Origin: Mesonia profundi
GTDB lineage: Bacteria > Bacteroidota > Bacteroidia > Flavobacteriales > Flavobacteriaceae
Assembly (NCBI RefSeq): GCF_031085155.1
Contig: NZ_JAVHUL010000016.1
Span: 1-64,000 of the forward strand
Reading direction: 5' to 3'
Length of the DNA: 64,000 nucleotides
Shown: piece after piece, positions 15,491 to 30,134 of the stretch
How positions within the stretch are numbered: position 1 is the first letter of the stretch
How the letters are laid out: every line of letters starts with the position of its first letter
Position numbers and translations under genes: made by a program
The notes under the pieces: model-generated
Told to the model about the DNA's origin: nothing
Database searches by the model: none
Seen by the model: only the letters and a program-made list of their open reading frames with translations

Positions 15491-15491
15491 A

Positions 15492-16717
15492 ATGCTTCAG
15501 TATAAAATTATCAATGCCCGTCTTAGCAACCATAAAAACCCGGTTCAGATTGGGATTAAAGATGGTCTTATTACCCAAATTAAAGAAAATATCAACGCTT
15601 CCGCGGAAGCGATACTAGACGCCAACAATAATTGGGTAAGCCCAGGATTTTTGAGAGCCACATTCACCTTGACAAAGCCTGTATTCTAGACCGCTGTAAC
15701 ATAGAAGAAGGCACCTTAGAAGAGGCTGTAAACGAAACTTCCAAAGCAAAAAAAGATTTTACCGAAGAAGACGTTTACAAAAGAGCGAGCCAGGTGGTAG
15801 AAATGGCCATTAAAAAAGGAACCATGGGAATGAGAACTTTTGTAGAAACAGATCCTAAAACCAGTTTAAGAGCCTTTAATGCGATTAAAAAAGTAAAAGA
15901 GAACTACGCTTTTGCCATAGACATTCAAATTTGTGCTTTTGCGCAAGAAGGCTTAACAGACAGCAAAGAGACACAAGCCCTCTTAGAAGAAGCATTACAA
16001 AATGGCGCAACGGTGGTTGGCGGTTGCCCATACAAAGATGAAAATCTCAACAAGCATATAGAAATGATTCTAGACTTGGCTCAAAAGTATGCTATAGATG
16101 CAGATTTTCACTTAGACTTTGACTTAAATCCTGAAGATTCTAATTCTAGCATTCCCAAATTGGTAGAAGAAACACTTAAACGTAATTATCAAGGGAAAGT
16201 GAGTATTGGGCACGTTACCAAACTGGCAGCCATGAGGCCAGAGCAACGCGAAAAAATGATTTCTCTGTTAGAAAGCGCTAACATAAATTTGAGCATTCTG
16301 CCCGCTACAGATATTTTCCTTAACGGAAGAAATACGGGCAATCCTAAACCTCGAGGACTCGTAAATGCCAAAGATTTTGCAAAACGCATAAATACCTGTA
16401 TTGCCAGCAATAATATTCTTAATGCTTTTACACCTTACGGCGATGCCTCTCTATTGCGAATGGCGAATATGTATGCTAATTTATCTCAAGCAGCAACCAA
16501 AGAAGAATTGGAAACCGTCTATAAAATGATTGGTCAAAATGCTGCGCAAATGCTTCAGCAAAATTTTGCTTTGGAAGAGAATAGGCCAGCAAATTTGGTA
16601 ATTGTAGAAGCCAAAAATGCTACCGATGCTATCCGAAAAATTTCGCAGCCTTTATTAGGCATCAAAAATGGCAAAGTCAGTTTTAAAAATGAGGCTGCAA
16701 TTTTGTTTATCCCTTAA
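15492..16717 (+). pseudogene. amidohydrolase (cytosine deaminase-like), split by a one-base frameshift
   Basis: The first 53 codons encode the N-terminal beta sandwich of a metal-dependent amidohydrolase (MLQYKIINARLSNH ... NNWVSPGF). At about 15650-15660, in a T5 run, the frame shifts and the rest continues in another frame from ESHIHLDKACIL through QICAFAQEG, DFHLDFDLNP, IGHVTKLAAM and TPYGDASLLRM to the end. The HxH metal motif, the later histidines and the final aspartate are all kept. The joined protein would be about 408 residues, normal for the cytosine deaminase/isoguanine deaminase-like branch. As read, neither half can fold alone; a lost base in the homopolymer, real or a sequencing error, is the likely cause. 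Confidence 0.87.
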
Positions 16718-16762
16718 TTCTAAGTACCTTTAAAGTAACCACGATTTAATAACTCAAAGACT

Positions 16763-19537
16763 ATGAAAGAAACCATAAAAAACATTACCAAAACCTTAAA
16801 AACCGCGAAAGGCGATTTAAAATACATCAGTTTAAAGGAATTTGCAGAAAAGAACCCTAAAGTAAAGGAACTCCCCTTCTCTATTAAAATATTATTGGAG
16901 AATGCGTTACGGAATTATGACGGCTTTTTAATAGAAGATGAACACATTCACAACTTGGTGAATTGGAATCCTAAAGGCAGTAACCACTCGGTTCCTTATA
17001 AACCCGCTCGGGTGTTGATGCAGGATTTTACTGGGGTTCCCGCAGTAGTAGATATTGCTGCCATTAGATCTGAAGCAATTCGAAAAGGAAAAGACGGTTC
17101 CAAAATTAATCCGAAAGTTCCCGTAGATTTAGTCATTGACCACTCGGTGCAAGTAGATTTCTTCGGAACAGATTACGCCTATAAGAAAAATGTAGAATAC
17201 GAATATAAACGAAATAAAGAGCGTTACGAAGTGCTTAAATGGGCACAAAATGCGTTTGAAAATTTTACTGTGGTACCTCCAGGAATGGGTATTTGCCACC
17301 AAGTAAACTTAGAATATTTAGCTAAAGGAGTCGTAAACCGTGACGGTTGGGCTTTTCCAGATACTTTGGTAGGAACAGATTCGCATACCCCCATGGTAAA
17401 TGGCGTTGGTGTAATTGGCTGGGGTGTTGGTGGTATTGATGCCGAAGCTGCTTTACTTGGACAACCTATTTATTTTTCGGCACCAAAAGTCATCGGTTTA
17501 AAACTGGAAGGAAAACGCCCCGAAGGAATCACCTCTACCGATATGGTATTGGAAATTACTCAGGTTTTACGCTCTTATGGCGTAGTGGGCGATTTTGTAG
17601 AAGTTTTTGGTGAAGGTTTAGACCATCTTACGGTTCCTGATAGAGCCACAATTGCGAATATGTCTCCAGAGTTTGGTTGTACCGTAACCTACTTTCCTAT
17701 TGATGATCAAACGATCAAATATATGACGGACACTAACCGCGATCAAGATCAATTAGATCTAGTGCAAGACTATTGTAAAAACAATTTACTGTGGCGTACA
17801 GGAAAAGAAGAAATCAGCTATAGTGATATCGTAACGGTTGATTTATCTAAATTAGAGCCTACCGTTTCTGGACCTAAATTACCACAACAGAAGATTTTGG
17901 TGAAAGACCTCAAAAATAAATTTAGTGATATTTTAAAAGAATCTCACGGCAGGGATTATCTGTCTCTTGATAAAAGAGAAACTTGGTATTCTGAAGGAGG
18001 CTCGGGTACAAAATTCAACAAACAGTTTAGAGAACAAAAAGTAGATAAAGAAATTTCGGTAGAGAAAGATGATGCCTTACACTCGGTAAGTATTGCTCAA
18101 GGAAATGAACAATATTCTCTAAGTGACGGTTCTATTGTAGTGGCGGCGATTACGTCATGTACCAATACTTCTAATCCATCGGTCATGTTGGGAGCTGGTT
18201 TAGTGGCCAGAAAAGCCATTGAAAAAGGAATCGATGTCAAGCCTTGGGTAAAAACTTCTTTAGCACCAGGTTCTAAAGTAGTAACCAGTTATTTAAAACG
18301 CGCCGGATTGCTAGAAGATCTAGAAGCCTTACGTTTTCACGTGGTAGGTTATGGATGTACCACATGTATTGGAAATTCGGGTCCGCTTCCACCCCACATT
18401 GATAAAGCGATTGATGACGGAGAGCTTTTAGTAGCTTCTGTACTGAGTGGAAATCGAAATTTTGAAGCAAGAATTCATAATAAAATTGAAATGAATTTCT
18501 TAGCTTCTCCAATGTTGGTGGTAGCTTATGCCATTGCAGGACGTGTGGATATCAATTTGATGGAAGATCCGTTAACAAAAGATGCCAACGGCAGAGAAGT
18601 TTATTTAAAAGATATATGGCCTTCTCAGGAAGAAATTGATCAAGCGATGAAAATTGCCACCTCTAAAGAGGATTACGCTCGGGAGTATGATGTGATCTTT
18701 GACGGAGAAGAGCAATGGAAAAACTTAGAAGCGCCAAGCGGATTAGATTACGAATGGAAAGATGATTCTACTTATATTAAAGAAATTCCGTTTTTTAAAG
18801 ACATCAGTGAAAACCCTGAAGCGCTTAAAAATATAGAGAATGCTAATGTATTAATGAAACTCGGTAACTCTGTAACCACCGATCATATTTCTCCAGCTGG
18901 TTTATTTTCTGAACGAAGTGAAGCCGGAAAGTATTTGCTAGAGAAAGGCGTAGAAAAGAATATGTTTAACTCTTATGGTTCCCGTCGTGGAAACCACGAA
19001 GTGATGATGCGGGGTACTTTTGCCAATGTGCGTATCAATAATGAGATTGCTAAACGTAAAGGTGGATATACTAACTATTTCCCAGACAATAAGGAAATGA
19101 CGGTGTATGACGCGGCCATGAAATACAAAGAAACCAACACGCCTCTCGTGGTAATTGCCGGAACGCAATACGGTTCGGGTTCTTCTCGAGATTGGGCCGC
19201 AAAAGGAACAATTCTATTAGGAGTAAAAGCGGTTATTGCGACTTCTTACGAACGTATTCACCGCTCTAATTTAGTAGGAATGGGAGTTTTACCTTTAAAA
19301 TTTAAAGACGGAGAAGACGCTTATAGCTTAAATTTAACGGGAAGAGAAACCTATAGCATTGAAGGAATCGAAGCCGGATTAACTCCCGGAAAAGAACTCG
19401 ATGTGGTAGCCACTGCCCCCGACGGCAAAAAAACCGAATTCAAGGTGATTACTCGTTTGGACTCTAAAATTGAAATAGAATATGTAAAACACGGAGGTAT
19501 TTTACAATATGTCCTAAGACAATTTTTAGACGAATAA
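16763..19537 (+). CDS. acnA: aconitate hydratase (AcnA type)
   Basis: A 924-residue cytosolic [4Fe-4S] enzyme that interconverts citrate and isocitrate in the TCA cycle. Cluster ligands are visible in AITSCTNTSNPSVM (about residue 466) and GYGCTTCIGNSGPL (about 530). Other family blocks are VGTDSHTPMVNGVGVIGWGVGG, the swivel domain with GSSRDWAAKG and a final arginine-bearing motif in SYERIHRSNLVGMGV. Length and order match the AcnA/IRP1 branch rather than AcnB. It follows the broken amidohydrolase by 45 bp. A very strong hairpin lies 42 bp after its stop. Confidence 0.97.
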   Translation: MKETIKNITKTLKTAKGDLKYISLKEFAEKNPKVKELPFSIKILLENALRNYDGFLIEDEHIHNLVNWNPKGSNHSVPYKPARVLMQDFTGVPAVVDIAAIRSEAIRKGKDGSKINPKVPVDLVIDHSVQVDFFGTDYAYKKNVEYEYKRNKERYEVLKWAQNAFENFTVVPPGMGICHQVNLEYLAKGVVNRDGWAFPDTLVGTDSHTPMVNGVGVIGWGVGGIDAEAALLGQPIYFSAPKVIGLKLEGKRPEGITSTDMVLEITQVLRSYGVVGDFVEVFGEGLDHLTVPDRATIANMSPEFGCTVTYFPIDDQTIKYMTDTNRDQDQLDLVQDYCKNNLLWRTGKEEISYSDIVTVDLSKLEPTVSGPKLPQQKILVKDLKNKFSDILKESHGRDYLSLDKRETWYSEGGSGTKFNKQFREQKVDKEISVEKDDALHSVSIAQGNEQYSLSDGSIVVAAITSCTNTSNPSVMLGAGLVARKAIEKGIDVKPWVKTSLAPGSKVVTSYLKRAGLLEDLEALRFHVVGYGCTTCIGNSGPLPPHIDKAIDDGELLVASVLSGNRNFEARIHNKIEMNFLASPMLVVAYAIAGRVDINLMEDPLTKDANGREVYLKDIWPSQEEIDQAMKIATSKEDYAREYDVIFDGEEQWKNLEAPSGLDYEWKDDSTYIKEIPFFKDISENPEALKNIENANVLMKLGNSVTTDHISPAGLFSERSEAGKYLLEKGVEKNMFNSYGSRRGNHEVMMRGTFANVRINNEIAKRKGGYTNYFPDNKEMTVYDAAMKYKETNTPLVVIAGTQYGSGSSRDWAAKGTILLGVKAVIATSYERIHRSNLVGMGVLPLKFKDGEDAYSLNLTGRETYSIEGIEAGLTPGKELDVVATAPDGKKTEFKVITRLDSKIEIEYVKHGGILQYVLRQFLDE

Positions 19538-19579
19538 TTGTTTTAAATTAGTCATATCTGATTAAGATTTTTTACCGCT

Positions 19580-19627
19580 GCTAGCCTGTATTCTTTGGAC
19601 GGATTCGTCCAAAGAATACAGGCTAGC
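19580..19627. terminator. very long perfect hairpin after acnA
   Basis: Two 22-nt arms (19580-19601 and 19606-19627) are perfectly complementary around the 4-nt loop GATT; the arms begin GCTAGCCTG and end CAGGCTAGC, followed by GCTTTT. It is longer than needed for a simple terminator. It may be a terminator, a recombination or binding site, or the left boundary of the inserted Wadjet-like locus. The 155 bp after it to 19782 hold only AT-rich sequence. Confidence 0.75.
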
Positions 19628-19748
19628 GCTTTTAGATACTAGAAATTAGAATTGACTTCCACTAACCGACAAGCAAAAAATCGCTTTTAAATTATAAAAA
19701 AGCCTTGGATTGTTCTTTATTTTATGGAAAGAAACAACGTATATTTTT

Positions 19749-19756
19749 TATATTTG
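19749..19756 (+). promoter_or_regulatory. candidate -7 box for the Wadjet-like operon
   Basis: TATATTTG fits the Bacteroidota TANNTTTG consensus and lies 26 bp before the jetA start. No TTG at the expected -33 distance was found, so this is only a partial promoter. Confidence 0.35.
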
Positions 19757-19782
19757 GAATACTATCTAATAAGAGGTTATAA

Positions 19783-20979
19783 ATGAACATCTTCCACAAT
19801 ATCAAAGAATTGGTTACCTCACTAAAAAATGAGGAAAAACTAATTGCTGAAATGTTTGGGAAACGGAAATCGATGGACTATAAATATTCCGATGCCATTG
19901 AATTGGTCGATTACGACGAAAATCGGCTTGACTTTTTGATTGAGCGTGGGGTTATTCGGGAAAATGGCGGATTGTTGGAACTCGATGACCAATATTTGGA
20001 ATTCTTTGAGCAGGTCTTGGATGTGAATGAAGAAATTAACCTTTCTTATATTGATGACAACATCAAAAACATTAAGGAAAACATCGATTATTTCCTCAAT
20101 GAGGGCAACGAAAATAGAAAATACAACTATTTAAAATTTATCAAAAAAACCTTCCGCAAAATTGGGATAATCACGCTTCGGAGCGTGGTCGATTTAAGAC
20201 GAAATATAGAAAATACCTTTAAAAACGAACCCAATTATAAGAATAAACGGCTAAAACTGGAAAATTTAGATGAGAAAAGAATGCTGGTTAGCAATCTCAT
20301 CAAGCATACTATCTTGCTCATCAACGAGCAGGAACACACGTTTTTCAATCGGGCGCTGGATGAAGAGTTAAAGCGGATTATTATTGATCTCAAACATCAG
20401 CTTGGCGAATGTTCCCACAATTTAATTGAGATTGAAAAGCAAATCATCGATTACCTGAACCAAATAAAACACCAGGGTAGATTCATTGAAAAGCTGCGGA
20501 AAATAAAATACCTAAAAGACCATTTTACCATTGACGCTGAAACCGATATTAAACAACTGATCGCCAAAAAAAATCAGGTAATATTTGAAACCCGCTTAAG
20601 CGAACCCTTGAAATTATCTATCGATTATTTAAGGGAGAACGAACGTGCTTTTGAAGCCATTAAACGGATTTCCAAAAACCATCACGACCGGAAATCATTC
20701 GAGCCGGTTTTGGCCGATCGCATTTCCGAAGAGTTTTTGGGAAATAGTGTGGAAGAGGAAGTGATGATTAATTTGGAAGAACTTCGGAACCATTTTATGG
20801 CAACCAGCGATAATCTTTTTAACTTTATCCTGAATTACGATTTTTTAAAAGAAGTCGATTTTGACGAACGGGTAACCGTATTTTGTCAGCTCATTTCGCA
20901 ATACGAACACGAATTGACCATAGCAAATGAATTTTTAACCACCAACGGCGTTGAGTGTGCCTTGGTGTATCCAAAATAA
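19783..20979 (+). CDS. jetA: Wadjet-like JetA (MksF-type kleisin subunit)
   Basis: 398 residues. First gene of a four-gene SMC cassette. The N-terminus (MNIFHNIKELVTSLKNEEKL) and the rest of the chain are predominantly helical, with a long charged helical stretch from about 90 to 320. In such cassettes this position is held by the kleisin-like subunit that bridges the SMC heads and binds the WHD protein JetB. I recognise it by gene order and by the SMC and TOPRIM partners rather than by a clear motif of its own. The next gene starts 4 bp after its stop. A DUF3375-type signature was not obvious to me. Confidence 0.7.
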   Translation: MNIFHNIKELVTSLKNEEKLIAEMFGKRKSMDYKYSDAIELVDYDENRLDFLIERGVIRENGGLLELDDQYLEFFEQVLDVNEEINLSYIDDNIKNIKENIDYFLNEGNENRKYNYLKFIKKTFRKIGIITLRSVVDLRRNIENTFKNEPNYKNKRLKLENLDEKRMLVSNLIKHTILLINEQEHTFFNRALDEELKRIIIDLKHQLGECSHNLIEIEKQIIDYLNQIKHQGRFIEKLRKIKYLKDHFTIDAETDIKQLIAKKNQVIFETRLSEPLKLSIDYLRENERAFEAIKRISKNHHDRKSFEPVLADRISEEFLGNSVEEEVMINLEELRNHFMATSDNLFNFILNYDFLKEVDFDERVTVFCQLISQYEHELTIANEFLTTNGVECALVYPK

Positions 20980-20983
20980 GCCA

Positions 20984-21556
20984 ATGTTAACTAAATACAC
21001 TTCAGACATATTTGACGTACTGCGGAAAGGACAATTTATATGTTCCAATAGTCCAAATGACCATATCCAAACCCTTTATAAAGTTTTGGAAGATGAAAAT
21101 ACGTTTGAAGATTTGTACGAGTATTTTTATCAGATTAATTACATCTTGGAACACGGGAACGAATATTTTTATTTCAGCCGTTCCGAAAAAAATGCAGACC
21201 TCGACCGGAAATTGGAAAAAGCTTATGGCTGGATAGACATCCTGGATTTTTTAAAGACGTTTGATTCCGCCTTCGATGTTGGGTTTCGGTTTACACCCGC
21301 TGAAATTGTCAATCAGTTAAAAAACAATGCCGACTTAAAAAGCAAACTCGATACCTTAAAGAAAGTAGGTGCTTACAAGAAAAACTATTCCGATAGGATA
21401 AAAAAAATTATTGAAAAACTGGAAAAAGACAACTTTGTGAGTTTAGAAAATGAAGTTTCAGAAACCTACAAAGTGCTCACCTCTTTCAATTACTTAAAAG
21501 ACCTTATCACCACGATTAATATTCCCGAAGAAATAGAAAATGAGATACCTGAATAA
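20984..21556 (+). CDS. jetB: Wadjet-like JetB (MksE-type accessory subunit)
   Basis: 190 residues from ATG 20984 (an upstream GTG/TTG extension would run into jetA, so this start fits the 4-bp gap better). It is a small mostly helical protein (DVLRKGQFICSNSPNDHIQTL, then YFYQINYILEHGNEYFYFSR), fitting the winged-helix KITE-like subunit that binds the kleisin in Mks/Wadjet complexes. The C-terminus ends in an acidic IPEEIENEIPE tail. Its last 17 bp overlap jetC, which argues for tight translational coupling. Assigned mainly by position and size. Confidence 0.7.
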   Translation: MLTKYTSDIFDVLRKGQFICSNSPNDHIQTLYKVLEDENTFEDLYEYFYQINYILEHGNEYFYFSRSEKNADLDRKLEKAYGWIDILDFLKTFDSAFDVGFRFTPAEIVNQLKNNADLKSKLDTLKKVGAYKKNYSDRIKKIIEKLEKDNFVSLENEVSETYKVLTSFNYLKDLITTINIPEEIENEIPE

Positions 21557-24500
21557 AATCATATTTATCAATAGTGCATCGGTGAAATATGCCGAGATTG
21601 AACTGGACGGTAACGTGCATTTAATCGGCACGCAGGGCGTTGGGAAAAGTACCCTGCTGCGGGCTATTTTATTTTTTTACAATGCCAACAAGACCAAATT
21701 GGGCATCCCACGGGAAAAGAAAGGTTTTGATGAATATTATTTCGACTATCAAAATTCTTACATCATTTATGAAATTGTAAAAGATGACATTCCTTTTTGC
21801 GTACTCGCCTACAAAGTAAACGGAAAAGTAGCCTATCGTTTTTTTAATTCTAAGTATAAAAGGGAGTTGTTTATCGATGAACATAACCGAGCTTTTGAAA
21901 GTTGGGATAAAATAAGAAACGCTTTTGGGAAAACAATTCATTACACACCCATCGTTTCAAGCTACGAAGATTTCCGACGCATAATTTATGGTGATAATAA
22001 AGGCTTAAAGGCCGATTTTAGAAAGTATGCTCTTATTGAAAGTAAACAATATCAAAATATACCACGGACCATTCAGAATGTGTTTCTAAATTCTAATTTA
22101 GAAGCTCAATTCATCAAAGATACCATCATCAAATCCTTGAATGAAGACGAGTTTAGCATCGATTTGGAAAACTATTCCAAAAATCATTTGCGGGATTTTG
22201 AAAGTCAGATCAATGATATTAAAATCTGGTCCAAGACCAACAAAAAAGGCCAAGTTGTGGTACGCAAACAAGCCGATAAAATAATTGATCGGTTTCGGGT
22301 TTTTAAGTACCTCAATCGGGAAAAGAAGCAATTAGGCTATAATTTGGCTGGTAGAATAGATTTTATTGAAAAAGAAAAACCCTTGCTTTCGTCTACTTTC
22401 AGCAGGGAAAATTCGATGCTTCATAAGCTAACTGAGGACCGGGAAAACCTAAAAAAATTACATTTAAAACGAGCACAAAAACTCATCTCCGAAATTGATT
22501 ACCTGAAAAAAGAACTCAAAAAAGGAAAGCAAAAGCAGGCCGATTATGCCACGAAAAACATAGATAAGGTCATTGGAAAAATAGCGAAAAAGGCTACGCT
22601 AACCAATGAGGAAGAGGCGTTTTCGGAAGAAAAAACCCTGCTCACGTCAAAATTTGCGGAAATAAGTCAAAAATTTGAAGCCCTGATTTCGCAAATTCAA
22701 AATCAGAATCAAAAATTTGAAAATGCGCAAACTGCAGCAATTAATACAAAGATTGGTGCTTTTAGCGACAACAAAGCGTCCCTTTACGAAAGGTATGAGA
22801 AGGTCATAAAACAGATAAGGGATGACCAAAAAGAAGAAAGAGAACAGGCTCAAAATGAATTGGAGTTGGTGAAAGAGCAAGAAAATGGGCTAAGAAGAAA
22901 GAAAGCAGAATTAAAATACCAAACTTTTTTTAATGCTGAAATAACACAACGTCAAGAAGAAAAGAAAGCGCTGGACGATGTGATTTCTAAGACGACAAGC
23001 AGTATTCAAGATGCCAAAAATGAAACTGGAACCCTTCGGAAAGAATGGGAATTGGAAACCAAAGAAATTGAGCGAGCGGCCGATTTAAAAATTGATAAAG
23101 CCACCGAAATTCAACAAAAATTTTCTGCAAAAATTAAAGGTGTTGAAAATAAAATCAAGCAAAGTCAATCGTCACTTTACGGCTGGTTAAACGAAAATGT
23201 TCCGGATTGGGAAAACAACATCGGGAAAGTCATCGATGAAGAAGATGTACTTTTTAATACCAATTTAAATCCAAAATTGACTGATGCTAAAACGACGAGC
23301 CTCTTTGGAGTAGAGTTGAATTTGAACGCGCTGGAAAATAGGGTAAAATCGCTTCAAGAATATAAAGCGGATATTGATGCCTTTCAACAAAAAATTGAAG
23401 CAAACCAAAAACGAATTTTGCAGCTGAACTCCGAAAAAGCGGACCGGTTGCAAAAAATGAAAACGAAATTCAACAAAAAACTAAAAGTCCTTAAAGACAG
23501 CCTTGCAGAAAACGAGTATAAGCTTTCCCAAAGTCAGGAAAAATTAAAAAAGAACAAAATTGATGTTGACGAATGGCTTGCCAAAGCGAAAACAGAAAAA
23601 GAAAATAATACTGAAAAACTGGAAAATGAGTTGGATGCCATCGCTTCTAAAAAATTGAAGGCTCAGGAAAATGTAGAACATATAAAAAAGGGAATCAGCC
23701 GGAAAATAAGTCTGAAGGAAACCGAGCGCACAAAAGAAATCAACACTCTTGAAAAAGGAAAGGAAACCGAAATTGAAGCCATAAAACGTAGCATTTCAAA
23801 AAATAAAGAAGAAGTTGAACAACGCATTCAAGAGCTAAAAAACAAACAAACCGCAGAATTGGACGATAAAGGCGCCGATACTGAACGACTTAATTTTATT
23901 GATAATGCATTAAAAGAGATTATTAAAGCCCTGGATTACATTAAAGAAAATGAAGCACTCGTCATTGAATACAACAAGGACAAACGGGAGCTCTTTGATA
24001 AAATTCCGGAGTTAAAATCGGAGAAAGCAAGTTTAGAAAAAAAGCAAGCTTCTCTTGTGGAAATCCATAAAATCGAACTGGACAAAATCACCGAAAAACA
24101 CCAGGAGCAAGATATATTTGTAAAATCAATTGCCACTGAAATTGAAGCCTTTGAAGCCGATGCGGAAAAGTTTGAGGAATTCAAAAAATCGGATGCTTAT
24201 GCGAGCATCCAAGTTGAGCTTTTAGGACAGATTGATAAAAAACCTGAATCAAAATCTGCCATTGACCTGATTTCAGAAATTAATGATGCGCATTACAAAG
24301 GAATTGGAACTTTCAAAGAACTACAGCAAGCCACCAATGCCTTTATTGGGAATTTTAACGAGCATAATGTTTTCAACTTCAAAGTAAAGCTGAATGAAGA
24401 TAGCGACTTTTTAAATTTTGCCGAGGACCTTAAAGAATTTGTGGAAGAAGATAAAATTGAGCAATATGAAAAACGGGTAAACGAACGTTTTGCGCATATT

Positions 24501-25247
24501 ATTCAGCAAATTGGAAATGAAACGGGGGAATTGATTTCCAAGGAAGCCGAAATTGAAAAAGTCATCAAAAAAATCAACAATGATTTTGTGACCAAGAATT
24601 TTGTGCAGGCCATCAAAGAAATGGAGATGCGCACGCAAAAAAGTTCGAATCCAATTGTAAGGCTATTGCTTCAAATAAAATATTTTAATGATGAAAACAG
24701 TCTGCTTTTGGGCCAAGCCAATCTGTTTACTTCTTCGGGCAGCAGCAGCAGTTCAAAAAATCAAAAAGCGGTAGAATTACTAAAACAACTCATTAAAGAG
24801 TTGGAGCGCTATAAAAGTACCAGCCTCAGTTTATCGGAATCTTTTGATTTACAATTCAGGATTGTCGAAAACGACAATAATTCTGGTTGGGTAGAAAAAT
24901 TATCCAACGTGGGCAGCGAAGGTACCGATGTGTTGGTAAAGGCGATGATAAATATCTTGTTGCTCAATGTTTTTAAAGAGAGCGCCTCAAAGAAATTTAA
25001 GGACTTTAAAGTGCATTGTATGATGGATGAAATAGGACGCTTGCATCCCAATAACATGAGAGGTATTTTGAGGTTTGCCAATGAGCGTAATATCTTTTTG
25101 ATCAACGGTTCGCCCACAAGTCAAAACGCCACCGATTATAAATACACCTATAAACTGGCTAAGCAACAATCCAAAACAGATGCTAAAAAGTACATTACCA
25201 AAATCAATCGGTTGGTGAAAGTGAATGCAAAAGTTCTTTCACAATGA
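21540..25247 (+). CDS. jetC: Wadjet-like JetC (MksB/SbcC-like SMC ATPase)
   Basis: 1235 residues, the motor of the system. The N-terminal head has a Walker A motif GTQGVGKST at residues 30-38. Two long coiled-coil arms (about 270-545 and 610-1000, rich in K, E and Q heptads) flank a non-coiled hinge-like segment around SLYGWLNENVPDWENN and FGVELNL. The C-terminal head holds a signature-like LSNVGSEGTDVLVK near 1121 and Walker B with VHCMMDEIGRL (D1163, E1164), then INGSP as the switch region. Known of the family: JetABC complexes extrude DNA loops by ATP hydrolysis and detect small circular DNA, which JetD then cuts. Confidence 0.92.
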   Translation: MRYLNKIIFINSASVKYAEIELDGNVHLIGTQGVGKSTLLRAILFFYNANKTKLGIPREKKGFDEYYFDYQNSYIIYEIVKDDIPFCVLAYKVNGKVAYRFFNSKYKRELFIDEHNRAFESWDKIRNAFGKTIHYTPIVSSYEDFRRIIYGDNKGLKADFRKYALIESKQYQNIPRTIQNVFLNSNLEAQFIKDTIIKSLNEDEFSIDLENYSKNHLRDFESQINDIKIWSKTNKKGQVVVRKQADKIIDRFRVFKYLNREKKQLGYNLAGRIDFIEKEKPLLSSTFSRENSMLHKLTEDRENLKKLHLKRAQKLISEIDYLKKELKKGKQKQADYATKNIDKVIGKIAKKATLTNEEEAFSEEKTLLTSKFAEISQKFEALISQIQNQNQKFENAQTAAINTKIGAFSDNKASLYERYEKVIKQIRDDQKEEREQAQNELELVKEQENGLRRKKAELKYQTFFNAEITQRQEEKKALDDVISKTTSSIQDAKNETGTLRKEWELETKEIERAADLKIDKATEIQQKFSAKIKGVENKIKQSQSSLYGWLNENVPDWENNIGKVIDEEDVLFNTNLNPKLTDAKTTSLFGVELNLNALENRVKSLQEYKADIDAFQQKIEANQKRILQLNSEKADRLQKMKTKFNKKLKVLKDSLAENEYKLSQSQEKLKKNKIDVDEWLAKAKTEKENNTEKLENELDAIASKKLKAQENVEHIKKGISRKISLKETERTKEINTLEKGKETEIEAIKRSISKNKEEVEQRIQELKNKQTAELDDKGADTERLNFIDNALKEIIKALDYIKENEALVIEYNKDKRELFDKIPELKSEKASLEKKQASLVEIHKIELDKITEKHQEQDIFVKSIATEIEAFEADAEKFEEFKKSDAYASIQVELLGQIDKKPESKSAIDLISEINDAHYKGIGTFKELQQATNAFIGNFNEHNVFNFKVKLNEDSDFLNFAEDLKEFVEEDKIEQYEKRVNERFAHIIQQIGNETGELISKEAEIEKVIKKINNDFVTKNFVQAIKEMEMRTQKSSNPIVRLLLQIKYFNDENSLLLGQANLFTSSGSSSSSKNQKAVELLKQLIKELERYKSTSLSLSESFDLQFRIVENDNNSGWVEKLSNVGSEGTDVLVKAMINILLLNVFKESASKKFKDFKVHCMMDEIGRLHPNNMRGILRFANERNIFLINGSPTSQNATDYKYTYKLAKQQSKTDAKKYITKINRLVKVNAKVLSQ

Positions 25248-26095
25248 AAATGACCTTAAAAATAGCCAAGATTTTAATCTGTTTAATTGATGGCGAAAGC
25301 ATTGCTGCAAGTTCGGTCAAGAGCAAATTAATAGATAATTTAGTCCGTGAAAATATTCTTTTCAGAAAAGGAAAGCACCGCAAAACCTTGTCGTTGTTGA
25401 GCGAAAATGGGTTACGCCTCTATTTGGCAAACCAGCTTCAAATCAATGATTTGTATAAATACATTTCGGCTTTAGAAAACGAAAACTCAAGTCGAGCTGA
25501 ATTTGTGAAAATCACAACCGATTCCAAGCATTCAAAAGAACGGGCATTTCAAGGATTTTTAGTGAACTGTTATTTTCCGATGAACGCAGAATTAAATAAT
25601 CAAAAAATAATCCTCCATCCCGCAATGGGCAGTTTCGTTTTTATCTACGATTATAAAACCTTTAAAATTCCGGCGGTGGTAACGGTAATTGGGGTTGAAA
25701 ATGCCAAGAATTTCAGTCAGATTCAGCAGCAGAAATATCTATTTGAAGATATTACACCTCTATTTGTCTCTCGTTATCCACAAAACCAAAATAAGGATTT
25801 TATAAAATGGATGCAATCTATCCCCAACAAGTATTTGCATTTTGGCGATTTTGATGTGGCAGGAATTGGTATTTATTTGAATGAATATAAAAAGCACTTG
25901 GGAAGTAAAGCCAGTTTTTTTATCCCTGAAAATATTGAAAAAGTTTTGCAGAAAAGTGGAAATCGGGAACGCTACAATAAGCAGAAAATCAACTTTAAGG
26001 TTTCTGAAATTGAAGAAAAGCGCTTGTTACAACTCTTAAAGATAATCCAAACAGAAAAAAAGGGTTTGGATCAAGAGGTTTACATCAAAACCTGA
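25244..26095 (+). CDS. jetD: Wadjet-like JetD (TOPRIM nuclease, MksG-type), compact form
   Basis: 283 residues, overlapping jetC by 4 bp (ATGA). The TOPRIM core is visible: VIGVENAKNF supplies the metal-binding glutamate (E152), and YLHFGDFDVAGIGIY supplies the DxD pair (D202, D204), followed by GLDQE near the C-terminus. In known JetD proteins the topoisomerase-VI-like TOPRIM domain cleaves the plasmid after the JetABC motor has stalled on it. The chain is clearly shorter than many JetD proteins I recall, and its N-terminal 90 residues look like a small winged helix (VKSKLIDNLVRENILFRKGKH). The nuclease role is inferred from these motifs and the operon. Confidence 0.85.
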   Translation: MKMTLKIAKILICLIDGESIAASSVKSKLIDNLVRENILFRKGKHRKTLSLLSENGLRLYLANQLQINDLYKYISALENENSSRAEFVKITTDSKHSKERAFQGFLVNCYFPMNAELNNQKIILHPAMGSFVFIYDYKTFKIPAVVTVIGVENAKNFSQIQQQKYLFEDITPLFVSRYPQNQNKDFIKWMQSIPNKYLHFGDFDVAGIGIYLNEYKKHLGSKASFFIPENIEKVLQKSGNRERYNKQKINFKVSEIEEKRLLQLLKIIQTEKKGLDQEVYIKT

Positions 26096-26136
26096 AACAA
26101 TTTTTATATTAAGACCTGAGCTAAAAAAAAAATTAA

Positions 26137-26481
26137 ATGAAAGACCAACCCATAGACATCAATGAATCTAGCATAAAAAAATATATAAACTCCTTACGTC
26201 CAGATGATCTTGAAATTCGTAAAAAACTCGATTTTGGATACGACTATGATGGGAAAACATTTATTCTTTATGAAATTAGACCTGTTTGGAATAATCCTGA
26301 AGAAATCCAGCATATAGAATATGCAAAAATCAGGTACTATAAATCACGGCAAGAATGGAATTTATATTGGATGAGGGCCAGTCTAAAATGGGAACTTTAC
26401 CAACCTTTTCCTAAAGCTACACATATAGAAAAAATGATTACGTGTATAGAAGAAGATCAAAACGGATGCTTTTATGGCTAA
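26137..26481 (+). CDS. DUF3024-family protein
   Basis: 114 residues of a small cytosolic family of unknown function. The hallmarks are FILYEIRPVWNNPEE, AKIRYYKSRQEWNLYWMRASLKWELY and the C-terminal EEDQNGCFYG. The family is widespread in Proteobacteria and Bacteroidota; some members sit near DNA-related genes, but its role is unknown. It starts 41 bp after jetD on the same strand and overlaps the following UPF0158 gene by 8 bp, so the pair forms a unit that could be read through from the Wadjet-like operon. Confidence 0.8.
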   Translation: MKDQPIDINESSIKKYINSLRPDDLEIRKKLDFGYDYDGKTFILYEIRPVWNNPEEIQHIEYAKIRYYKSRQEWNLYWMRASLKWELYQPFPKATHIEKMITCIEEDQNGCFYG

Positions 26482-26911
26482 AATGAATTCAAAAATAATT
26501 AAAGAAATTGCAGGAAGTTTAGACTGCGGGGAAGATTGTTATTTAAATCGAAAAACAGGGGAACTAATTTGTATTCCAAATTTTTCTAATTTTGGATATG
26601 ATGAAGACTTTGAAGCCGTTTTTGAAGATGACACAAAAAAAGTAGCTCAGCATCCAAAAGATTTTATCAAATTTGAGGTGTTGGAAAGTTTTGAATCGTT
26701 TAAAATTATGGAATCCTTTGTGGAAAGCATTACCGAAAATCAATTCAGATTAGACTTAGAGCGTATATTACAGAGGAAGAAACCCTTCCAAAATTTTAAA
26801 CATGCGGTAGAATCTTCTAAACACCGACAAGTATGGTTTGATTTTAAACGAAAGGAACTAGAAAAAATCGTTGGAGACCAATTTGAACGTGAGTTTTTGA
26901 AAGACTCCTAA
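26474..26911 (+). CDS. UPF0158-family protein
   Basis: 145 residues. The pattern of an N-terminal acidic region (GEDCYLNRKTGELICIP), a middle SFESFKIMESFVESI and a C-terminal basic helix with KHAVESSKHRQVWFDFKR is that of the UPF0158 family, whose function is unknown. It overlaps the DUF3024 gene by 8 bp and is probably co-translated with it. Whether the pair belongs to the SMC system or merely flanks it is not decided by the sequence. Only about 100 bp of AT-rich sequence separates it from the convergent cardiolipin synthase gene. Confidence 0.8.
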   Translation: MAKMNSKIIKEIAGSLDCGEDCYLNRKTGELICIPNFSNFGYDEDFEAVFEDDTKKVAQHPKDFIKFEVLESFESFKIMESFVESITENQFRLDLERILQRKKPFQNFKHAVESSKHRQVWFDFKRKELEKIVGDQFEREFLKDS

Positions 26912-27019
26912 AAACAAATCCTTGCTTATACCTATTTTATCTTAAAATAGAATTGGTATTACTTGAAACAAAAACGAGTTTTTAAAAGCTTTCTTTTATA
27001 AAGAAATTTCAGGCAAGAA

Positions 27020-28474
27020 TTACAAGAACGGCGATAACAACCTGAAACATTTTTCAATCAGATGAGCGAATTTAGAACGTCCTAGCCATTCTTCCGGGCT
27101 GATGAGGCTTGCGTTTTCTAAATCTTCAAAGAACAGCGCTTTTAGCTCTATATTTAACTTCCGACTGTACACCATCGCATTGGCTTCAAAGTTTAAATCG
27201 AAGCTGCGGTAATCCATATTGGCCGAGCCTACAATGGCTAGATCATTATCTATACACAGGGTTTTAGCATGAACAAATCCCTTTTGATATAGGTAAATTT
27301 CTACTCCGTATTTTAATAGCTCGGTATAATATGAATGTGCGGCTAGATTCACCATTTTAGAATCTGATTTTCCAGGTACTAAAATTTTGACTTCTATTCC
27401 CTTTTGTGCTGCGATTACCAAAGCATCCATCAAGCTATCTCCTGGAATAAAGTAAGGAGACGTAATGTAAATGCATTTTTGTGCCGCGCTAATCGCTTCA
27501 ATCAAGGCGAAATATATGACTGGCATATCAGAATCTGGTCCAGAAGAAGCCATTTGTACAACATCCTCTTGGTAATTAGTATCTAATTGCGGACTAAGAA
27601 AATAAGACTGAGGCTGAGTTATAGGTTGTCCGCTACAAAAATTCCAATCGCTTATAAAGGAATACTGATAGAAAAAACTAGCCGTACCTTTTATCTTCAA
27701 ATGCGTATCACGCCAAAACAAAGCATCTTTAGCATGTGCATCATTTCGGTAGCGATCACTCACATTAATTCCACCTACAAAGGAAGTATCTCCGTCAATG
27801 ATGACTATTTTACGGTGATTTCGGTAATTGATTCTATTGGCGAAAGCATACCAGATAATCTCATAAAAAGGAGCGATATGCACTCCGGCTTCCTCTAACC
27901 CTTGTTTAAATGATTTTCCTAAGCTATGGCTTCCAAAATCATCATACATAAAGCGTACTTCTACTCCTTCTTGCGCTTTTCTTTTTAAAACCTCTGCTAC
28001 TTGTTGACCGGTGAAATCGTCTTCATAAATATAATATTGAATATGAATATGTTTCTCTGCTTTTTCTAAAGCTTCTAAAAGAACGGGGAATTTATGTTCT
28101 CCATTAGCCAATAACTCTACCTTATTATTTGCGGTAAGTGTACTCTGACCGGCTTTCGCTAAAAAATTGACCAGATTAGTATGCTGCGGAGCCACTAGAT
28201 CACTTTGCAGAATTCCTTTGTGGTACTGTAATAATTTTTGCTCCACCTGCTTTAGTAAAGCTACATCCTGAATAATTTTCTTAGAATATATTTTTCGTTT
28301 CCGATAATTCACTCCGAAAGAAAAATAAAAGAAAATACCGAAAATAGGAACAAATACTACCAACAAAATATAGGCTAGGGTCTTAGAAAAGTTTCTAGTA
28401 TCATAGATAACCCGAAGAACCACCAAGATGGTTATCAGCACATAAATGATTTGTAAGATTAGAATATAGTTCAT
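27020..28474 (-). CDS. cls: cardiolipin synthase (phospholipase D superfamily)
   Basis: 484 residues. Two N-terminal transmembrane segments (residues 3-21 and 31-53) are followed by two PLD catalytic HxK motifs: HRKIVIIDGDTSFVGG from H220 and HAKTLCIDNDLAIVGSANMD from H402. Known reaction: condensation of two phosphatidylglycerol molecules to cardiolipin at the inner membrane. Length and layout match bacterial Cls of the ClsA type. The single-gene context gives no further clue. The start MNYILILQIIYVL is the natural hydrophobic N-terminus. Confidence 0.95.
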   Translation of the reverse strand: MNYILILQIIYVLITILVVLRVIYDTRNFSKTLAYILLVVFVPIFGIFFYFSFGVNYRKRKIYSKKIIQDVALLKQVEQKLLQYHKGILQSDLVAPQHTNLVNFLAKAGQSTLTANNKVELLANGEHKFPVLLEALEKAEKHIHIQYYIYEDDFTGQQVAEVLKRKAQEGVEVRFMYDDFGSHSLGKSFKQGLEEAGVHIAPFYEIIWYAFANRINYRNHRKIVIIDGDTSFVGGINVSDRYRNDAHAKDALFWRDTHLKIKGTASFFYQYSFISDWNFCSGQPITQPQSYFLSPQLDTNYQEDVVQMASSGPDSDMPVIYFALIEAISAAQKCIYITSPYFIPGDSLMDALVIAAQKGIEVKILVPGKSDSKMVNLAAHSYYTELLKYGVEIYLYQKGFVHAKTLCIDNDLAIVGSANMDYRSFDLNFEANAMVYSRKLNIELKALFFEDLENASLISPEEWLGRSKFAHLIEKCFRLLSPFL

Positions 28475-28544
28475 GGACTACTAGTGTTTTTCAAATCAAT
28501 ATCTTTGTGGCAAGACGCAAGCTATTAAATGTACAGGATTTAAT

Positions 28545-29441
28545 TTACCTAGGAGTTACTTGAGGTTTCTTTTTCTTTTCGCGAATTAGATAAATACCGA
28601 TTAATATAAGCACGGCACCAATTAAGTACCAAAAATTAAATTTCTCTCCATCTAAAACACCCCAGATTACTGCTACTATTGGTAATAAATAAGAAACGGT
28701 ACTCGCAAAAACTGCTGAAGTATCCTGAATCAGTTTATAAAATAAAGCGATTCCTATAGCCGTACCGAAGATACTAAGTACCCCCATATAGCCTAAAGCT
28801 TCTATAGATTGATCATTAATAGGAGTACTAAAAAATCCAGAGAAAATTAAAATGAAAAAGGAAGGAATCATCCAAATACTAAACACACTACTGGAAATGT
28901 GAATGGATTTTACCTCTTGTAGTTTCAGCTTAATGATAAGCGCTGAAACCGCATAAGATGCCGAAGCCAAGACCATAAGCAAAGTATATCCCAGCTGAGT
29001 TTCTTCGGTATTCATTTCTGAAAAGTATAATAAAGTTACCGCTCCAAAAAAACCGATGATCGCGCCTATAATTTGTGTAAATTTACTTTTGATACCAAAT
29101 AACATAAAGCCTAATACCAAAACAAAAATAGGCTCTAAACTATTAATAATTCCTGCTAAAGAACTGCTTACTTTGGTTTGCGCAATGGGAAATAAAAACA
29201 TGGGTAAAAAGTTACCGAAAAATCCAGCTGCTGCAATCCATAAAGCATCTCTCATTTTCATTTTCAGCAAAGCAGGAATCCCTATAAAAGAAAGAATAAT
29301 TCCGGATAAGCCTACGCGAAAAGCGCCAATTTCATAAGGAGAAAAAACCGTAAGAGACTTTTTAATTAGAATAAAAGAACTCCCCCAGGTGATGGCCATT
29401 ATGATGAGTAAGAACCACTTGTTTTTAAAAAGAGTAAGCAT
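28545..29441 (-). CDS. EamA/DMT-family transporter
   Basis: 298 residues with ten predicted helices, i.e. two EamA repeats of five helices. N-terminal WFLLIIMAITWGSSFILIKK is the family's characteristic first helix (WGSSF), repeated in weaker form near the middle (SASYAVSALIIKLKL). Such proteins export metabolites, often amino acids or purines, but the substrate is not readable. It ends with the basic tail EKKKKPQVTPR. It lies 70 bp upstream, in the transcription sense, of the cls gene on the same strand. Confidence 0.9.
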   Translation of the reverse strand: MLTLFKNKWFLLIIMAITWGSSFILIKKSLTVFSPYEIGAFRVGLSGIILSFIGIPALLKMKMRDALWIAAAGFFGNFLPMFLFPIAQTKVSSSLAGIINSLEPIFVLVLGFMLFGIKSKFTQIIGAIIGFFGAVTLLYFSEMNTEETQLGYTLLMVLASASYAVSALIIKLKLQEVKSIHISSSVFSIWMIPSFFILIFSGFFSTPINDQSIEALGYMGVLSIFGTAIGIALFYKLIQDTSAVFASTVSYLLPIVAVIWGVLDGEKFNFWYLIGAVLILIGIYLIREKKKKPQVTPR

Positions 29442-29544
29442 AGCAAGTTATTATCCTTAAGGAAAATTAAAACCCACAAAGCTACTACTTAAATTCAGAA
29501 TGAGAGAGTAGGAACCCATTTATTAACACGTTTTTATACTCGTA

Positions 29545-29991
29545 TTAATGAATAAGGTTGATGTCTAAATGAAGACTTTCTTGGAAAGAAAATTCACAAT
29601 CCTTAAAAGAAGGAGCCGAGAATTTAGGTTTAAAATTAGTAGAGAACCCATAAGGCTCTTTAGGAACTCCTATGAAGTTACGGTTGCACTTGGTATCTCC
29701 ATTTTCATCGTGATAAAGAGAGATTGCATAGTTCCCCTTCAATAAGTCTGGAATTTTTATACTGGCTTTTTTATTTTTGACAGGGATACGATATGTTTTA
29801 AGAGCTTCTCCTTCTTCTAAAAAACCTTCTTGTTTATTGTAAAGTCCCATTTCTATAAACCCAACATCTTTTTCAATTCCATGTATTTCTATAAACAATT
29901 CTGGGCTTGGGTTTGCAGGTTGGTTTAAAACCACTAAAAGCAAAAGAGATATTAAATAATGCATAGGTTTATTTTTTACTAAGTTAAACAT
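29545..29991 (-). CDS. DUF2141-family secreted protein
   Basis: 148 residues; the likely start is internal at M10 (29964), giving the signal peptide MHYLISLLLLVVLNQPANP. The mature part has the DUF2141 pattern: FIEMGLYNKQEGFL, YAISLYHDENGDTKCNRN and GVPKEPYGFS. The family is a small Ig-like beta sandwich exported to the periplasm or surface in Bacteroidota, function unknown. Its nearest neighbours are an exporter and a monooxygenase, both on the same strand, with no obvious link. Confidence 0.87.
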   Translation of the reverse strand: MFNLVKNKPMHYLISLLLLVVLNQPANPSPELFIEIHGIEKDVGFIEMGLYNKQEGFLEEGEALKTYRIPVKNKKASIKIPDLLKGNYAISLYHDENGDTKCNRNFIGVPKEPYGFSTNFKPKFSAPSFKDCEFSFQESLHLDINLIH

Positions 29992-30134
29992 TTATTATGC
30001 CATAAAGTAATACGGGAAGATATCTATTTTTTATATTTTCAAAAAAATTACAAAAAAAACCGATCAATACAAATCAAGTCTTTACACTCTCATTCTCAGT
30101 ATATTCATCGGTTAAATTTTATGGCTTGAGGGTT

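What the first reader, a model, noticed from the sequence alone, without database searches (positions are those of the whole stretch)
19783..26095. Wadjet/JetABCD-like SMC anti-plasmid system, subtype unclear
Seen: four genes on one strand with gaps or overlaps of 4 to 17 bp, an SMC ATPase with Walker A at residues 30-38 and Walker B at 1163-1164, and a TOPRIM protein with E152/D202/D204. Known: JetABCD/MksBEFG systems extrude loops on small circular DNA and cut it. JetA and JetB here do not show family signatures I recognise, so this could be a divergent or new subtype.
Basis: partly seen in the sequence, partly recalled or inferred. Interest (0 to 1): 0.75.

Follow-up and report, generated by a model that had tools for sequence, protein, structure and literature searches.

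The report
Divergent Wadjet-like plasmid-cutting SMC operon
Four adjacent bacterial genes very probably build a DNA-reeling motor with its own DNA-cutting subunit, a distant branch of the known Wadjet anti-plasmid systems, several of whose relatives have kept the motor but lost the cutter.

Summary
Four co-directional genes (19783-26095) encode a kleisin (JetA/MksF), a KITE protein (JetB/MksE), an SMC ATPase (JetC/MksB) and a TOPRIM nuclease (JetD/MksG). The cassette is conserved: of 85 loci examined, 85 have the SMC and KITE genes, 84 the kleisin, 77 the nuclease; catalytic residues are nearly invariant. Pfam recognises JetB (MksE, 154 bits), JetC (DUF3584, 203 bits) and JetD (DUF7281, 48 bits). 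JetD's model is closest to C. glutamicum MksG by VIA-align (Z 13.0). JetA has no sequence family; its model's best Foldseek matches are JetABCD and MukF kleisins. For these four proteins PADLOC gives nothing above 24.6 bits, while a type I control locus scores 214-1213 bits. Profile comparison puts the system nearest to unlabelled SMC operons on proteobacterial plasmids, further from type I and MukBEF. JetD is compact (283 aa, no DUF3322). The cassette is patchy (1 of 15 congeners) and lies at different sites in two congeners. Eight relatives lack JetD, about six independent losses, with the other genes apparently under purifying selection. Best reading: a divergent Mks/Wadjet-group system that extrudes and cuts small circular DNA. 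Function is inferred, not shown. New variant of a known kind.

The parts
19783..20979 (+). JetA/MksF kleisin, 398 aa: N-terminal winged helix, helical bundle, disordered linker, C-terminal winged helix
   Evidence: ORF; no Pfam family over its cut-off, no PADLOC or NCBIfam match; 0 of 45 homologues hit a JetA model; AlphaFold model pLDDT 78, pTM 0.44; Foldseek ranks 1-9 are JetABCD or MukF chains, E 3.0e-5 to 8.1e-3, with low TM-scores
20984..21556 (+). JetB/MksE KITE subunit, 190 aa from ATG (TTG at 20951 would give 201 aa)
   Evidence: PF21980 MksE 6.8e-45, 154 bits
21540..25247 (+). JetC/MksB SMC ATPase, 1235 aa
   Evidence: PF12128 DUF3584 5.7e-60 over residues 18-1196; present in 85 of 85 loci
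21627..21653 (+). Walker A GTQGVGKST, JetC residues 30-38
   Evidence: K36 in 85 of 85 homologues
23172..23339 (+). conserved block in the middle of the coiled coil, JetC residues 545-600: probable hinge (inference)
   Evidence: conservation profile of 30 sequences and absence of CxxC
24909..24929 (+). ABC signature-like VGSEGTD, JetC residues 1124-1130
   Evidence: S1126, G1128 and T1129 each in 84 of 85 homologues, the other with a gap there
25026..25031 (+). Walker B D1163/E1164 of JetC
   Evidence: 84 of 85 homologues, the other with a gap there
25244..26095 (+). JetD/MksG-like nuclease, 283 aa: short N-terminal part of probable winged-helix kind, then TOPRIM
   Evidence: PF23947 DUF7281 1.9e-12; model pLDDT 89; VIA-align 8b7f MksG Z 13.0, rmsd 3.4, 155 aligned; 7til JetD Z 11.1, rmsd 3.9, 160 aligned
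25697..25699 (+). TOPRIM catalytic glutamate E152
   Evidence: 77 of 77 homologues
25847..25855 (+). TOPRIM DxD, D202 and D204
   Evidence: 77 of 77 homologues
19580..19627 (.). perfect 22-base inverted repeat between aconitase and jetA: probable aconitase terminator or regulatory hairpin (inference)
   Evidence: its arm occurs only here in the genome at up to 3 mismatches

Best explanation
A chromosomal, accessory, divergent member of the Mks/Wadjet group. JetA (kleisin), JetB (KITE) and JetC (SMC) form an ATP-driven loop-extruding motor, probably a dimer of motors joined through JetA. JetD is a dimeric TOPRIM nuclease recruited to that motor; when the motor has reeled in a whole small circular DNA, JetD cuts it, so the system restricts small plasmids. 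Shown here: gene content, conserved order, intact ATPase and nuclease residues, fold matches of JetA and JetD, sequence grouping, patchy distribution, repeated absence of JetD. Inferred from the studied type I systems: loop extrusion, sensing of circle size, cutting, plasmid restriction. Horizontal acquisition is inferred from distribution and site, not from base composition.
For: Pfam: JetB = MksE, JetC = DUF3584, JetD = DUF7281. Conserved cassette over 85 loci. Catalytic residues: JetD E152, D202, D204 in 77 of 77; JetC K36 in 85 of 85; D1163/E1164 in 84 of 85, the other with a gap. JetD model nearest MksG by VIA-align, with topoisomerase VI-A and P. aeruginosa JetD next. JetA model: Foldseek ranks 1-9 are JetABCD or MukF chains. 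Low dN/dS where dS is not saturated, e.g. L047/L048 about 0.06-0.12 for A, B, C and D. Accessory distribution: 1 of 15 other congeneric genomes, 2 of 21 from other genera of the family, 1 of 23 others of the order; a different site in the congener that has it. Literature: type I JetABCD/MksBEFG cut or limit circular plasmids (PMC10586767 and PMC10123090, passages).
Against: No functional data for any member of this group was found. No sequence match to a solved Wadjet or Muk chain. JetA's fold evidence is moderate: low TM-scores (0.15-0.35 for the kleisin rows), and VIA-align puts unrelated helical bundles first (Z 12.7) with kleisin rows at Z 10.7-12.1 and large rmsd. For JetD, Foldseek itself ranks topoisomerase VI-A and Spo11 first and shows neither MksG nor JetD in its 50 rows. 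JetD lacks the DUF3322 region of type I JetD, so its regulation may differ. The motor survives without JetD in several lineages, so cutting is not its only selected role. Base composition of the cassette does not stand out (G+C 0.354-0.368 in 2-kb windows between 19001 and 26000). The search for neighbouring defence genes was inconclusive.
Confidence: 0.78

Rival explanations
1. Primarily a chromosome-organising condensin of the MksBEF kind, with JetD acting as a decatenase or repair nuclease rather than for plasmid defence.
For: JetD-less relatives keep ATPase motifs in 8 of 8 SMCs and show low dN/dS (L082/L083 and L083/L087). P. aeruginosa MksBEF acts in chromosome segregation (PMC7485682, passages). 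ScpA (PF02616) was not detected in 6 of 6 Bacteroidota genomes tested.
Against: Patchy presence and different sites do not fit a core chromosomal role. JetD is kept in 79 of 87 loci with sequence downstream of the SMC gene, with its catalytic residues in 77 of 77 checked. JetD of type I lacks the catalytic tyrosine of topoisomerases (PMC10586767 section 7); this was not examined for the window's JetD.
Confidence: 0.12
2. An anti-phage rather than anti-plasmid system: motor and TOPRIM nuclease act on phage genomes.
For: SMC-like anti-phage systems such as Lamassu exist (PMC10586767, abstract start in the listing); weak AriA match of the window SMC (16.9 bits) and LmuB matches of relatives.
Against: Kleisin and KITE partners and the MksG/JetD fold are the Wadjet arrangement; those weak matches lie in coiled coil or the P-loop region.
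Confidence: 0.06
3. An SbcC/Rad50- or RecN-type repair operon misread as Wadjet.
For: P-loop and coiled-coil ATPase beside a nuclease.
Against: No CxxC zinc hook in the window SMC; near full-length DUF3584 match, MksE partner, kleisin-like fold.
Confidence: 0.01

Closest known systems
Wadjet type I JetABCD / C. glutamicum MksBEFG
   Same: Four corresponding parts in the order kleisin-KITE-SMC-TOPRIM; JetD TOPRIM fold and E/DxD residues; best VIA-align match of JetD is MksG 8b7f; type I JetB also matches PF21980 (75 bits)
   Different: JetA 398 aa against 481-506, no DUF3375; no DUF4194 match of JetB; JetC matches DUF3584 rather than AAA_29 plus SbcC_Walker_B; JetD 283 aa against 380-403, no DUF3322. 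Profile-profile probability: JetD 53% over the TOPRIM only, SMC 23%, KITE 1.4%, kleisin 0.2%
Unlabelled SMC operons on proteobacterial plasmids (L113-L115, L131-L133), order SMC-KITE-kleisin-TOPRIM
   Same: SMC over nearly full length (100%, 9e-60), KITE (96.5%) and whole JetD (97.8%) in profile comparison; JetD 283-301 aa; DUF7281 in L115
   Different: Different gene order; tblastn identity 22-38% over 8-51% of the SMC; kleisin only 27% profile probability. Annotated as ATP-binding and hypothetical proteins, one JetD as DUF2399. These operons are also detectably related to type I (SMC 97.3%, JetD 90.9%, KITE 62.6%)
Short-SMC operons (Salinibacter pSR76 L119; L128; L129)
   Same: Compact JetD in L119 and L128 (98.3% profile probability) and C-terminal SMC head (99.6%)
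   Different: SMC 887-966 aa; L128 has order C-D-A-B; KITE 1.5% and kleisin 0.6% profile probability
MukBEF
   Same: Kleisin-like fold (MukF rows); MukE and this JetB both match PF21980, 173 and 154 bits
   Different: No JetD beside it in E. coli; SMC 1486 aa with MukB-specific domains; profile comparison of SMC, KITE and kleisin under 1%
P. aeruginosa MksBEF
   Same: A motor without nuclease, as in the JetD-less relatives; MksBEF families are described as several and distant (PMC7485682, passages)
   Different: Sequences could not be fetched here; relation untested

Membership tests
Mks/Wadjet group (broad sense) | SMC ATPase of MukB-like kind with Walker A and B | tested here: met
   PF12128 203 bits; Walker residues K36, D1163, E1164 in 84-85 of 85
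Mks/Wadjet group (broad sense) | Kleisin subunit | tested here: met
   Winged helix, bundle, linker, winged helix in the model; Foldseek ranks 1-9 JetABCD or MukF chains. Caveats: low TM-scores, mixed VIA list, no sequence family
Mks/Wadjet group (broad sense) | KITE subunit | tested here: met
   PF21980 MksE 154 bits, cut-off 27; the model also matches MukE and type I JetB
Mks/Wadjet group (broad sense) | TOPRIM nuclease JetD/MksG with E and DxD | tested here: met
   Residues 77 of 77; MksG Z 13.0, rmsd 3.4, 155 aligned
Wadjet (function) | Restricts small circular plasmids by cleavage | not testable with these tools
   needs transformation and cleavage assays
Wadjet type I | JetA1 (DUF3375), JetB1 (DUF4194), JetC1 and JetD1 (DUF3322 plus JetD_C) profiles | tested here: not met
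   Window: JetC1 24.6 bits over residues 1-54, JetD1 22.6 bits, JetA1 and JetB1 none; control locus L124 449, 214, 1213 and 405 bits; Pfam families differ except PF21980
Wadjet type II | PADLOC JetA2, JetB2, JetC2, JetD2 profiles | tested here: not met
   No match at E <= 1 for the four window proteins. No type II control locus was at hand
Wadjet type III | PADLOC JetA3, JetB3, JetC3, JetD3 profiles | tested here: not met
   Only JetD3 at 20.0 bits over residues 189-271; none for A, B, C. No type III control locus was at hand
MukBEF | MukB N-terminal and hinge, MukE and MukF domains | tested here: not met
   None of these Pfam families listed for the window proteins; E. coli MukFEB hits them
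SbcC/Rad50 | Zinc-hook CxxC at the coiled-coil apex; Mre11/SbcD partner | tested here: not met
   No CxxC in the window SMC; no such domain among the six proteins scanned
P. aeruginosa-type MksBEF | Sequence kinship to P. aeruginosa MksB/E/F | not tested

The most novel reading that the evidence does not exclude
A fourth, so far uncatalogued Wadjet type, defined by a DUF3584 SMC, an MksE-like KITE, a short kleisin without a sequence family and a compact JetD of about 283 residues, spread through Bacteroidota with sister forms on proteobacterial plasmids, and one that repeatedly sheds its nuclease to leave a functional nuclease-free SMC motor, so that defence-to-condensin conversion can be watched happening within one family.
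Probability: 0.4. Interest if true: 0.72.

Novelty: new variant of a known kind. Interest (0 to 1): 0.52.

Why it matters
PADLOC 2.0.0 does not label this group, and the annotated plasmid records opened here call its genes ATP-binding or hypothetical proteins, so anti-plasmid immunity in Bacteroidota, gut Bacteroides included, may be under-counted, and DUF7281 and DUF3584 could tentatively be read as a compact JetD and its JetC. A JetD without the DUF3322 region is a natural test of what that region does. Members with and without JetD in one family allow a direct test of the proposal (PMC10586767, passages) that MksBEF-type condensins arose from Wadjet by loss of JetD.

Tried and rejected
SbcC/Rad50/RecN reading: rejected (no zinc hook; KITE and kleisin-like partners).

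Defence-island test: open frames of 110 aa or more stood in for genes; 13 of 85 loci were left out (the window, near-duplicates, short loci). 140 of 200 proteins within 1.6 kb of the cassette (five of 900 aa or more dropped) and 140 of 177 at 4.5 kb or more, drawn at random, were scanned with PADLOC at 1e-10: most-matched family 4 of 140 near and 2 of 140 far; 167 against 174 families. The tables show 25 families and no count of proteins with any hit, so nothing follows either way.

DUF3024 (PADLOC PDC-S43) and UPF0158 downstream as operon members: rejected; found in 1 of the 85 loci, the window (some loci have short flanks).

JetB N-terminal motif as a JetD contact lost in JetD-less members: not supported; the motif is largely kept there.

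JetD relocated rather than lost: tested in one JetD-less genome only (G407, no match).

Plasmid context: four 'plasmid' records with neighbouring OY accessions carry relatives; the two opened both name strain code TSDC17.2-1.1, and one (L111) carries rplU and rpmA and is probably chromosomal. They were not counted as plasmid evidence, but L111 and L118 are in the JetD tally and tree. Persicobacter pPP6 (ABCD) and pPP3 (ABC) look like true plasmids.

Site comparison: of six congeners with a full-length aconitase orthologue only two (G005, G011) also had the EamA gene within the fetched stretch; both lack the cassette there.

Dropped rows: of ten stretches fetched, five served as type I references (L120, L122-L125) and two as short-SMC references (L128, L129); L121 was dropped because part of it reads N, L126 and L127 because no Wadjet-like operon was seen. 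Of the five only L124 was confirmed with PADLOC and Pfam; L120, L122 and L123 rest on a DUF3322 hit, L125 on layout and a weak JetD3 hit. JetC homologues as a set were not scanned with PADLOC (cap reached).

No Rfam match at 15000-30000. Counts of promoter-like and terminator-like sites did not exceed shuffles by more than a fraction (18 against 22.4; 6 against 5.9). PDB sequence searches gave nothing relevant. In VIA lists absence of a family excludes nothing.
Full report
OBSERVATION. Protein 2 can start at ATG 20984 (190 aa) or TTG 20951 (201 aa); the ATG gives the +4 base gap, and the median of its homologues is 190 aa.

PARTS. Pfam: protein 2 is MksE (PF21980, 154 bits), protein 3 is DUF3584 (PF12128, 203 bits, residues 18-1196), protein 4 is DUF7281 (PF23947, 47.6 bits); protein 1 has no family over its cut-off. 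AlphaFold models used alignments of 45 sequences each. JetD: pLDDT 89. VIA-align ranks C. glutamicum MksG 8b7f first (Z 13.0, rmsd 3.4, 155 aligned), then topoisomerase VI-A 1d3y (Z 11.7, rmsd 3.8, 174 aligned); P. aeruginosa JetD 7til has Z 11.1 (rmsd 3.9, 160 aligned); after ten rows of topoisomerase VI, Spo11, MksG and JetD the list falls to Z 6.3, other proteins mostly of TOPRIM kind. Foldseek itself ranks topoisomerase VI-A and Spo11 first (best E 4.3e-6) and shows neither MksG nor JetD in its 50 rows. The first 100 residues match winged-helix proteins at Z about 5 in the rows shown, which is weak. JetA: pLDDT 78. Foldseek's ranks 1-9 are JetABCD or MukF chains (8q72_E 3.0e-5, 7nz2 7.3e-4, the rest 1.3e-3 to 8.1e-3) with low TM-scores; VIA-align lists unrelated helical bundles first and kleisin rows at Z 10.7-12.1 with large rmsd. 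The SMC has conserved heads at both ends, a moderately conserved block at about 526-595 that I read as the hinge, and no CxxC zinc hook.

FAMILY. A scan of genome contigs with a five-sequence SMC alignment gave 224 confirmed stretches, the best 80 kept as 79 loci; by record title nearly all are Bacteroidota, the exceptions being a Bathymodiolus symbiont (L022), Fibrobacter (L028), Melioribacter (L034) and a Desulfuromonadales bin (L077). Of the eight without JetD, two (L072, L077) end at the contig end, so six are informative. E152, D202 and D204 are present in 77 of 77 and Walker A K36 in 85 of 85.

RELATION TO KNOWN SYSTEMS. PADLOC finds no JetA or JetB model for the window, JetC1 at 24.6 bits over 54 residues (a second at 13.6) and JetD1/JetD3 at 20-22.6 bits. 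Over homologues: 0 of 45 JetA hit any JetA model; 5 of 43 JetB hit a JetB1 model, best 9.2e-4; 40 of 45 JetD hit a JetD1 model, best 5.2e-9, and 37 of 45 another, best 1.9e-9. A type I locus from another Bacteroidota genome, L124, scores 449, 214, 1213 and 405 bits, so the test can see type I; no type II or III control was at hand. Profile-profile comparison joins the window family (W) with proteobacterial plasmid operons (P: SMC 100%, 9e-60; KITE 96.5%; JetD 97.8%; kleisin 27%) and, in part, short-SMC operons (S: SMC head 99.6%; JetD 98.3%; KITE 1.5%; kleisin 0.6%). W against type I: SMC 23%, JetD 53% over the TOPRIM only, KITE 1.4%, kleisin 0.2%. W against MukBEF: under 1% for all three. P is also related to type I (SMC 97.3%, JetD 90.9%, KITE 62.6%), so these are branches of one group rather than strangers. 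Single-profile searches agree: at E <= 0.001 P profiles find 89 of 89 W SMCs, 71 of 89 KITEs, 45 of 79 JetDs and no kleisin; type I profiles find none; in reverse the W JetD profile finds one type I JetD (L122, 2.4e-4). References: 5 type I, 6 P, 3 S loci, 1 MukBEF. DUF7281 is not a sharp marker: L115 107.5 and L119 28.8 bits, but family member L116 25.1, under the cut-off of 27, and L128 none. PF21980 also matches MukE (173 bits) and type I JetB (75 bits), so it marks KITE, not subtype.

ACCESSORY. Besides the window genome, a full-length SMC relative occurs in 1 of 15 congeneric genomes, 2 of 21 from other genera of the family and 1 of 23 others of the order, and in 1 of 394 other genomes drawn over the phylum (four further matches there were partial, and at most two candidates a genome were scored in the rows shown). 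In the congener G005 the cassette (67% identical SMC) lies elsewhere, beside a methylmalonyl-CoA mutase-like ORF by my reading, and its aconitase-EamA interval, like that of G011, holds other genes. Base composition of the cassette does not stand out. In Persicobacter psychrovividus an ABCD copy lies on plasmid pPP6 near a relaxase gene.

LOSS OF THE NUCLEASE. JetD is missing next to ABC in L057, L058, L059, L082, L083 and L087, and in L111 and L117: 8 of 87 loci with sequence downstream of the SMC gene (L082 and L083 are near-copies). In a tree of 59 SMCs (50 of the 89 family members; quick search, no bootstrap, long branches among the outgroups) these need six changes of state when L072 and L077 are not counted. 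All six P loci and two of three S loci have a JetD (none was identified in L129), so losses are likelier than gains. All eight JetD-less SMCs keep Walker A, signature and Walker B patterns. Between JetD-less L083 and L087, dN is 0.09-0.15 against dS 1.3-1.7 (near saturation); between L082 and L083, dN 0.001-0.004 against dS 0.07-0.19. So the three-subunit motor appears maintained without the nuclease. In the one JetD-less genome searched, G407, no JetD match exists elsewhere. ScpA was not detected in 6 of 6 Bacteroidota genomes, so a condensin role for such motors is possible, but they are too patchy to be the general condensin.

LITERATURE. PMC10586767 (passages; section 7) describes type I JetABCD and suggests that P. 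aeruginosa MksBEF arose by loss of JetD. PMC10123090 (passages) describes MksBEFG. PMC7617805 (passages; section 52) surveyed the Wadjet group in over 250,000 genomes, says that several members lack MksG/JetD, and kept only MksF proteins of 400-1200 aa; in this family 61 of 82 JetA proteins counted are under 400 aa, so the window and most relatives would fail that filter, though some would pass. Its Data S1 could not be read, so I cannot say whether the group is in it. PMC10197239 (passages) found no known condensin in its two Bacteroidetes. PMC7485682 (passages): MksBEF families are several and distant. PMC12287153 and PMC12153180 (passages) added nothing decisive. Searches whose listings showed no description of this group: (open library only; two searches listed 30 of 60 and 25 of 50 papers). 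Doron 2018 and Petrushenko 2011 are recalled, not read.

VERDICT. A divergent Mks/Wadjet-group operon, by parts and gene order a plasmid-cutting SMC system, outside types I-III as PADLOC's profiles define them. The mechanism is inferred from type I. Most interesting are the compact JetD and the repeated absence of JetD.

Noticed in passing
window 26137-26911: DUF3024 (PADLOC candidate PDC-S43, 142 bits) and a UPF0158 gene follow jetD by about 40 bases on the same strand but were found in none of the other 84 loci examined, some of which have short flanks.
   Followed up: partly
window 19580-19627: Perfect 22-base inverted repeat with a 4-base loop between aconitase and jetA; no other copy in the genome at up to 3 mismatches.
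   Followed up: yes
window 19538-28547: The interval between aconitase and an EamA transporter is variable: in the two congeneric genomes where both ends were in view it holds other genes.
   Followed up: partly
L113, L114, L115, L131, L132, L133: A sister operon with order SMC-KITE-kleisin-TOPRIM on large proteobacterial plasmids, annotated as ATP-binding and hypothetical proteins apart from one DUF2399.
   Followed up: partly
   Followed up: partly
L112: A relative of the sister operon lies beside Tn7-like transposition genes on a conjugative IncC plasmid, its SMC gene apparently interrupted by an IS256-like element.
   Followed up: no
L064 8498-8995; L069 1779-2765; L077 6210-8305; L053 12655-13542: Unrelated genes or stretches lie between subunit genes (DUF1016-like, RhuM-like, Schlafen/AlbA-like by my reading), suggesting the cassette tolerates insertions.
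   Followed up: no
G000, G005, G018, G028, G052, G407: No ScpA kleisin (PF02616) detected in 6 of 6 Bacteroidota genomes, while 9 of 14 control genomes ring.
   Followed up: no
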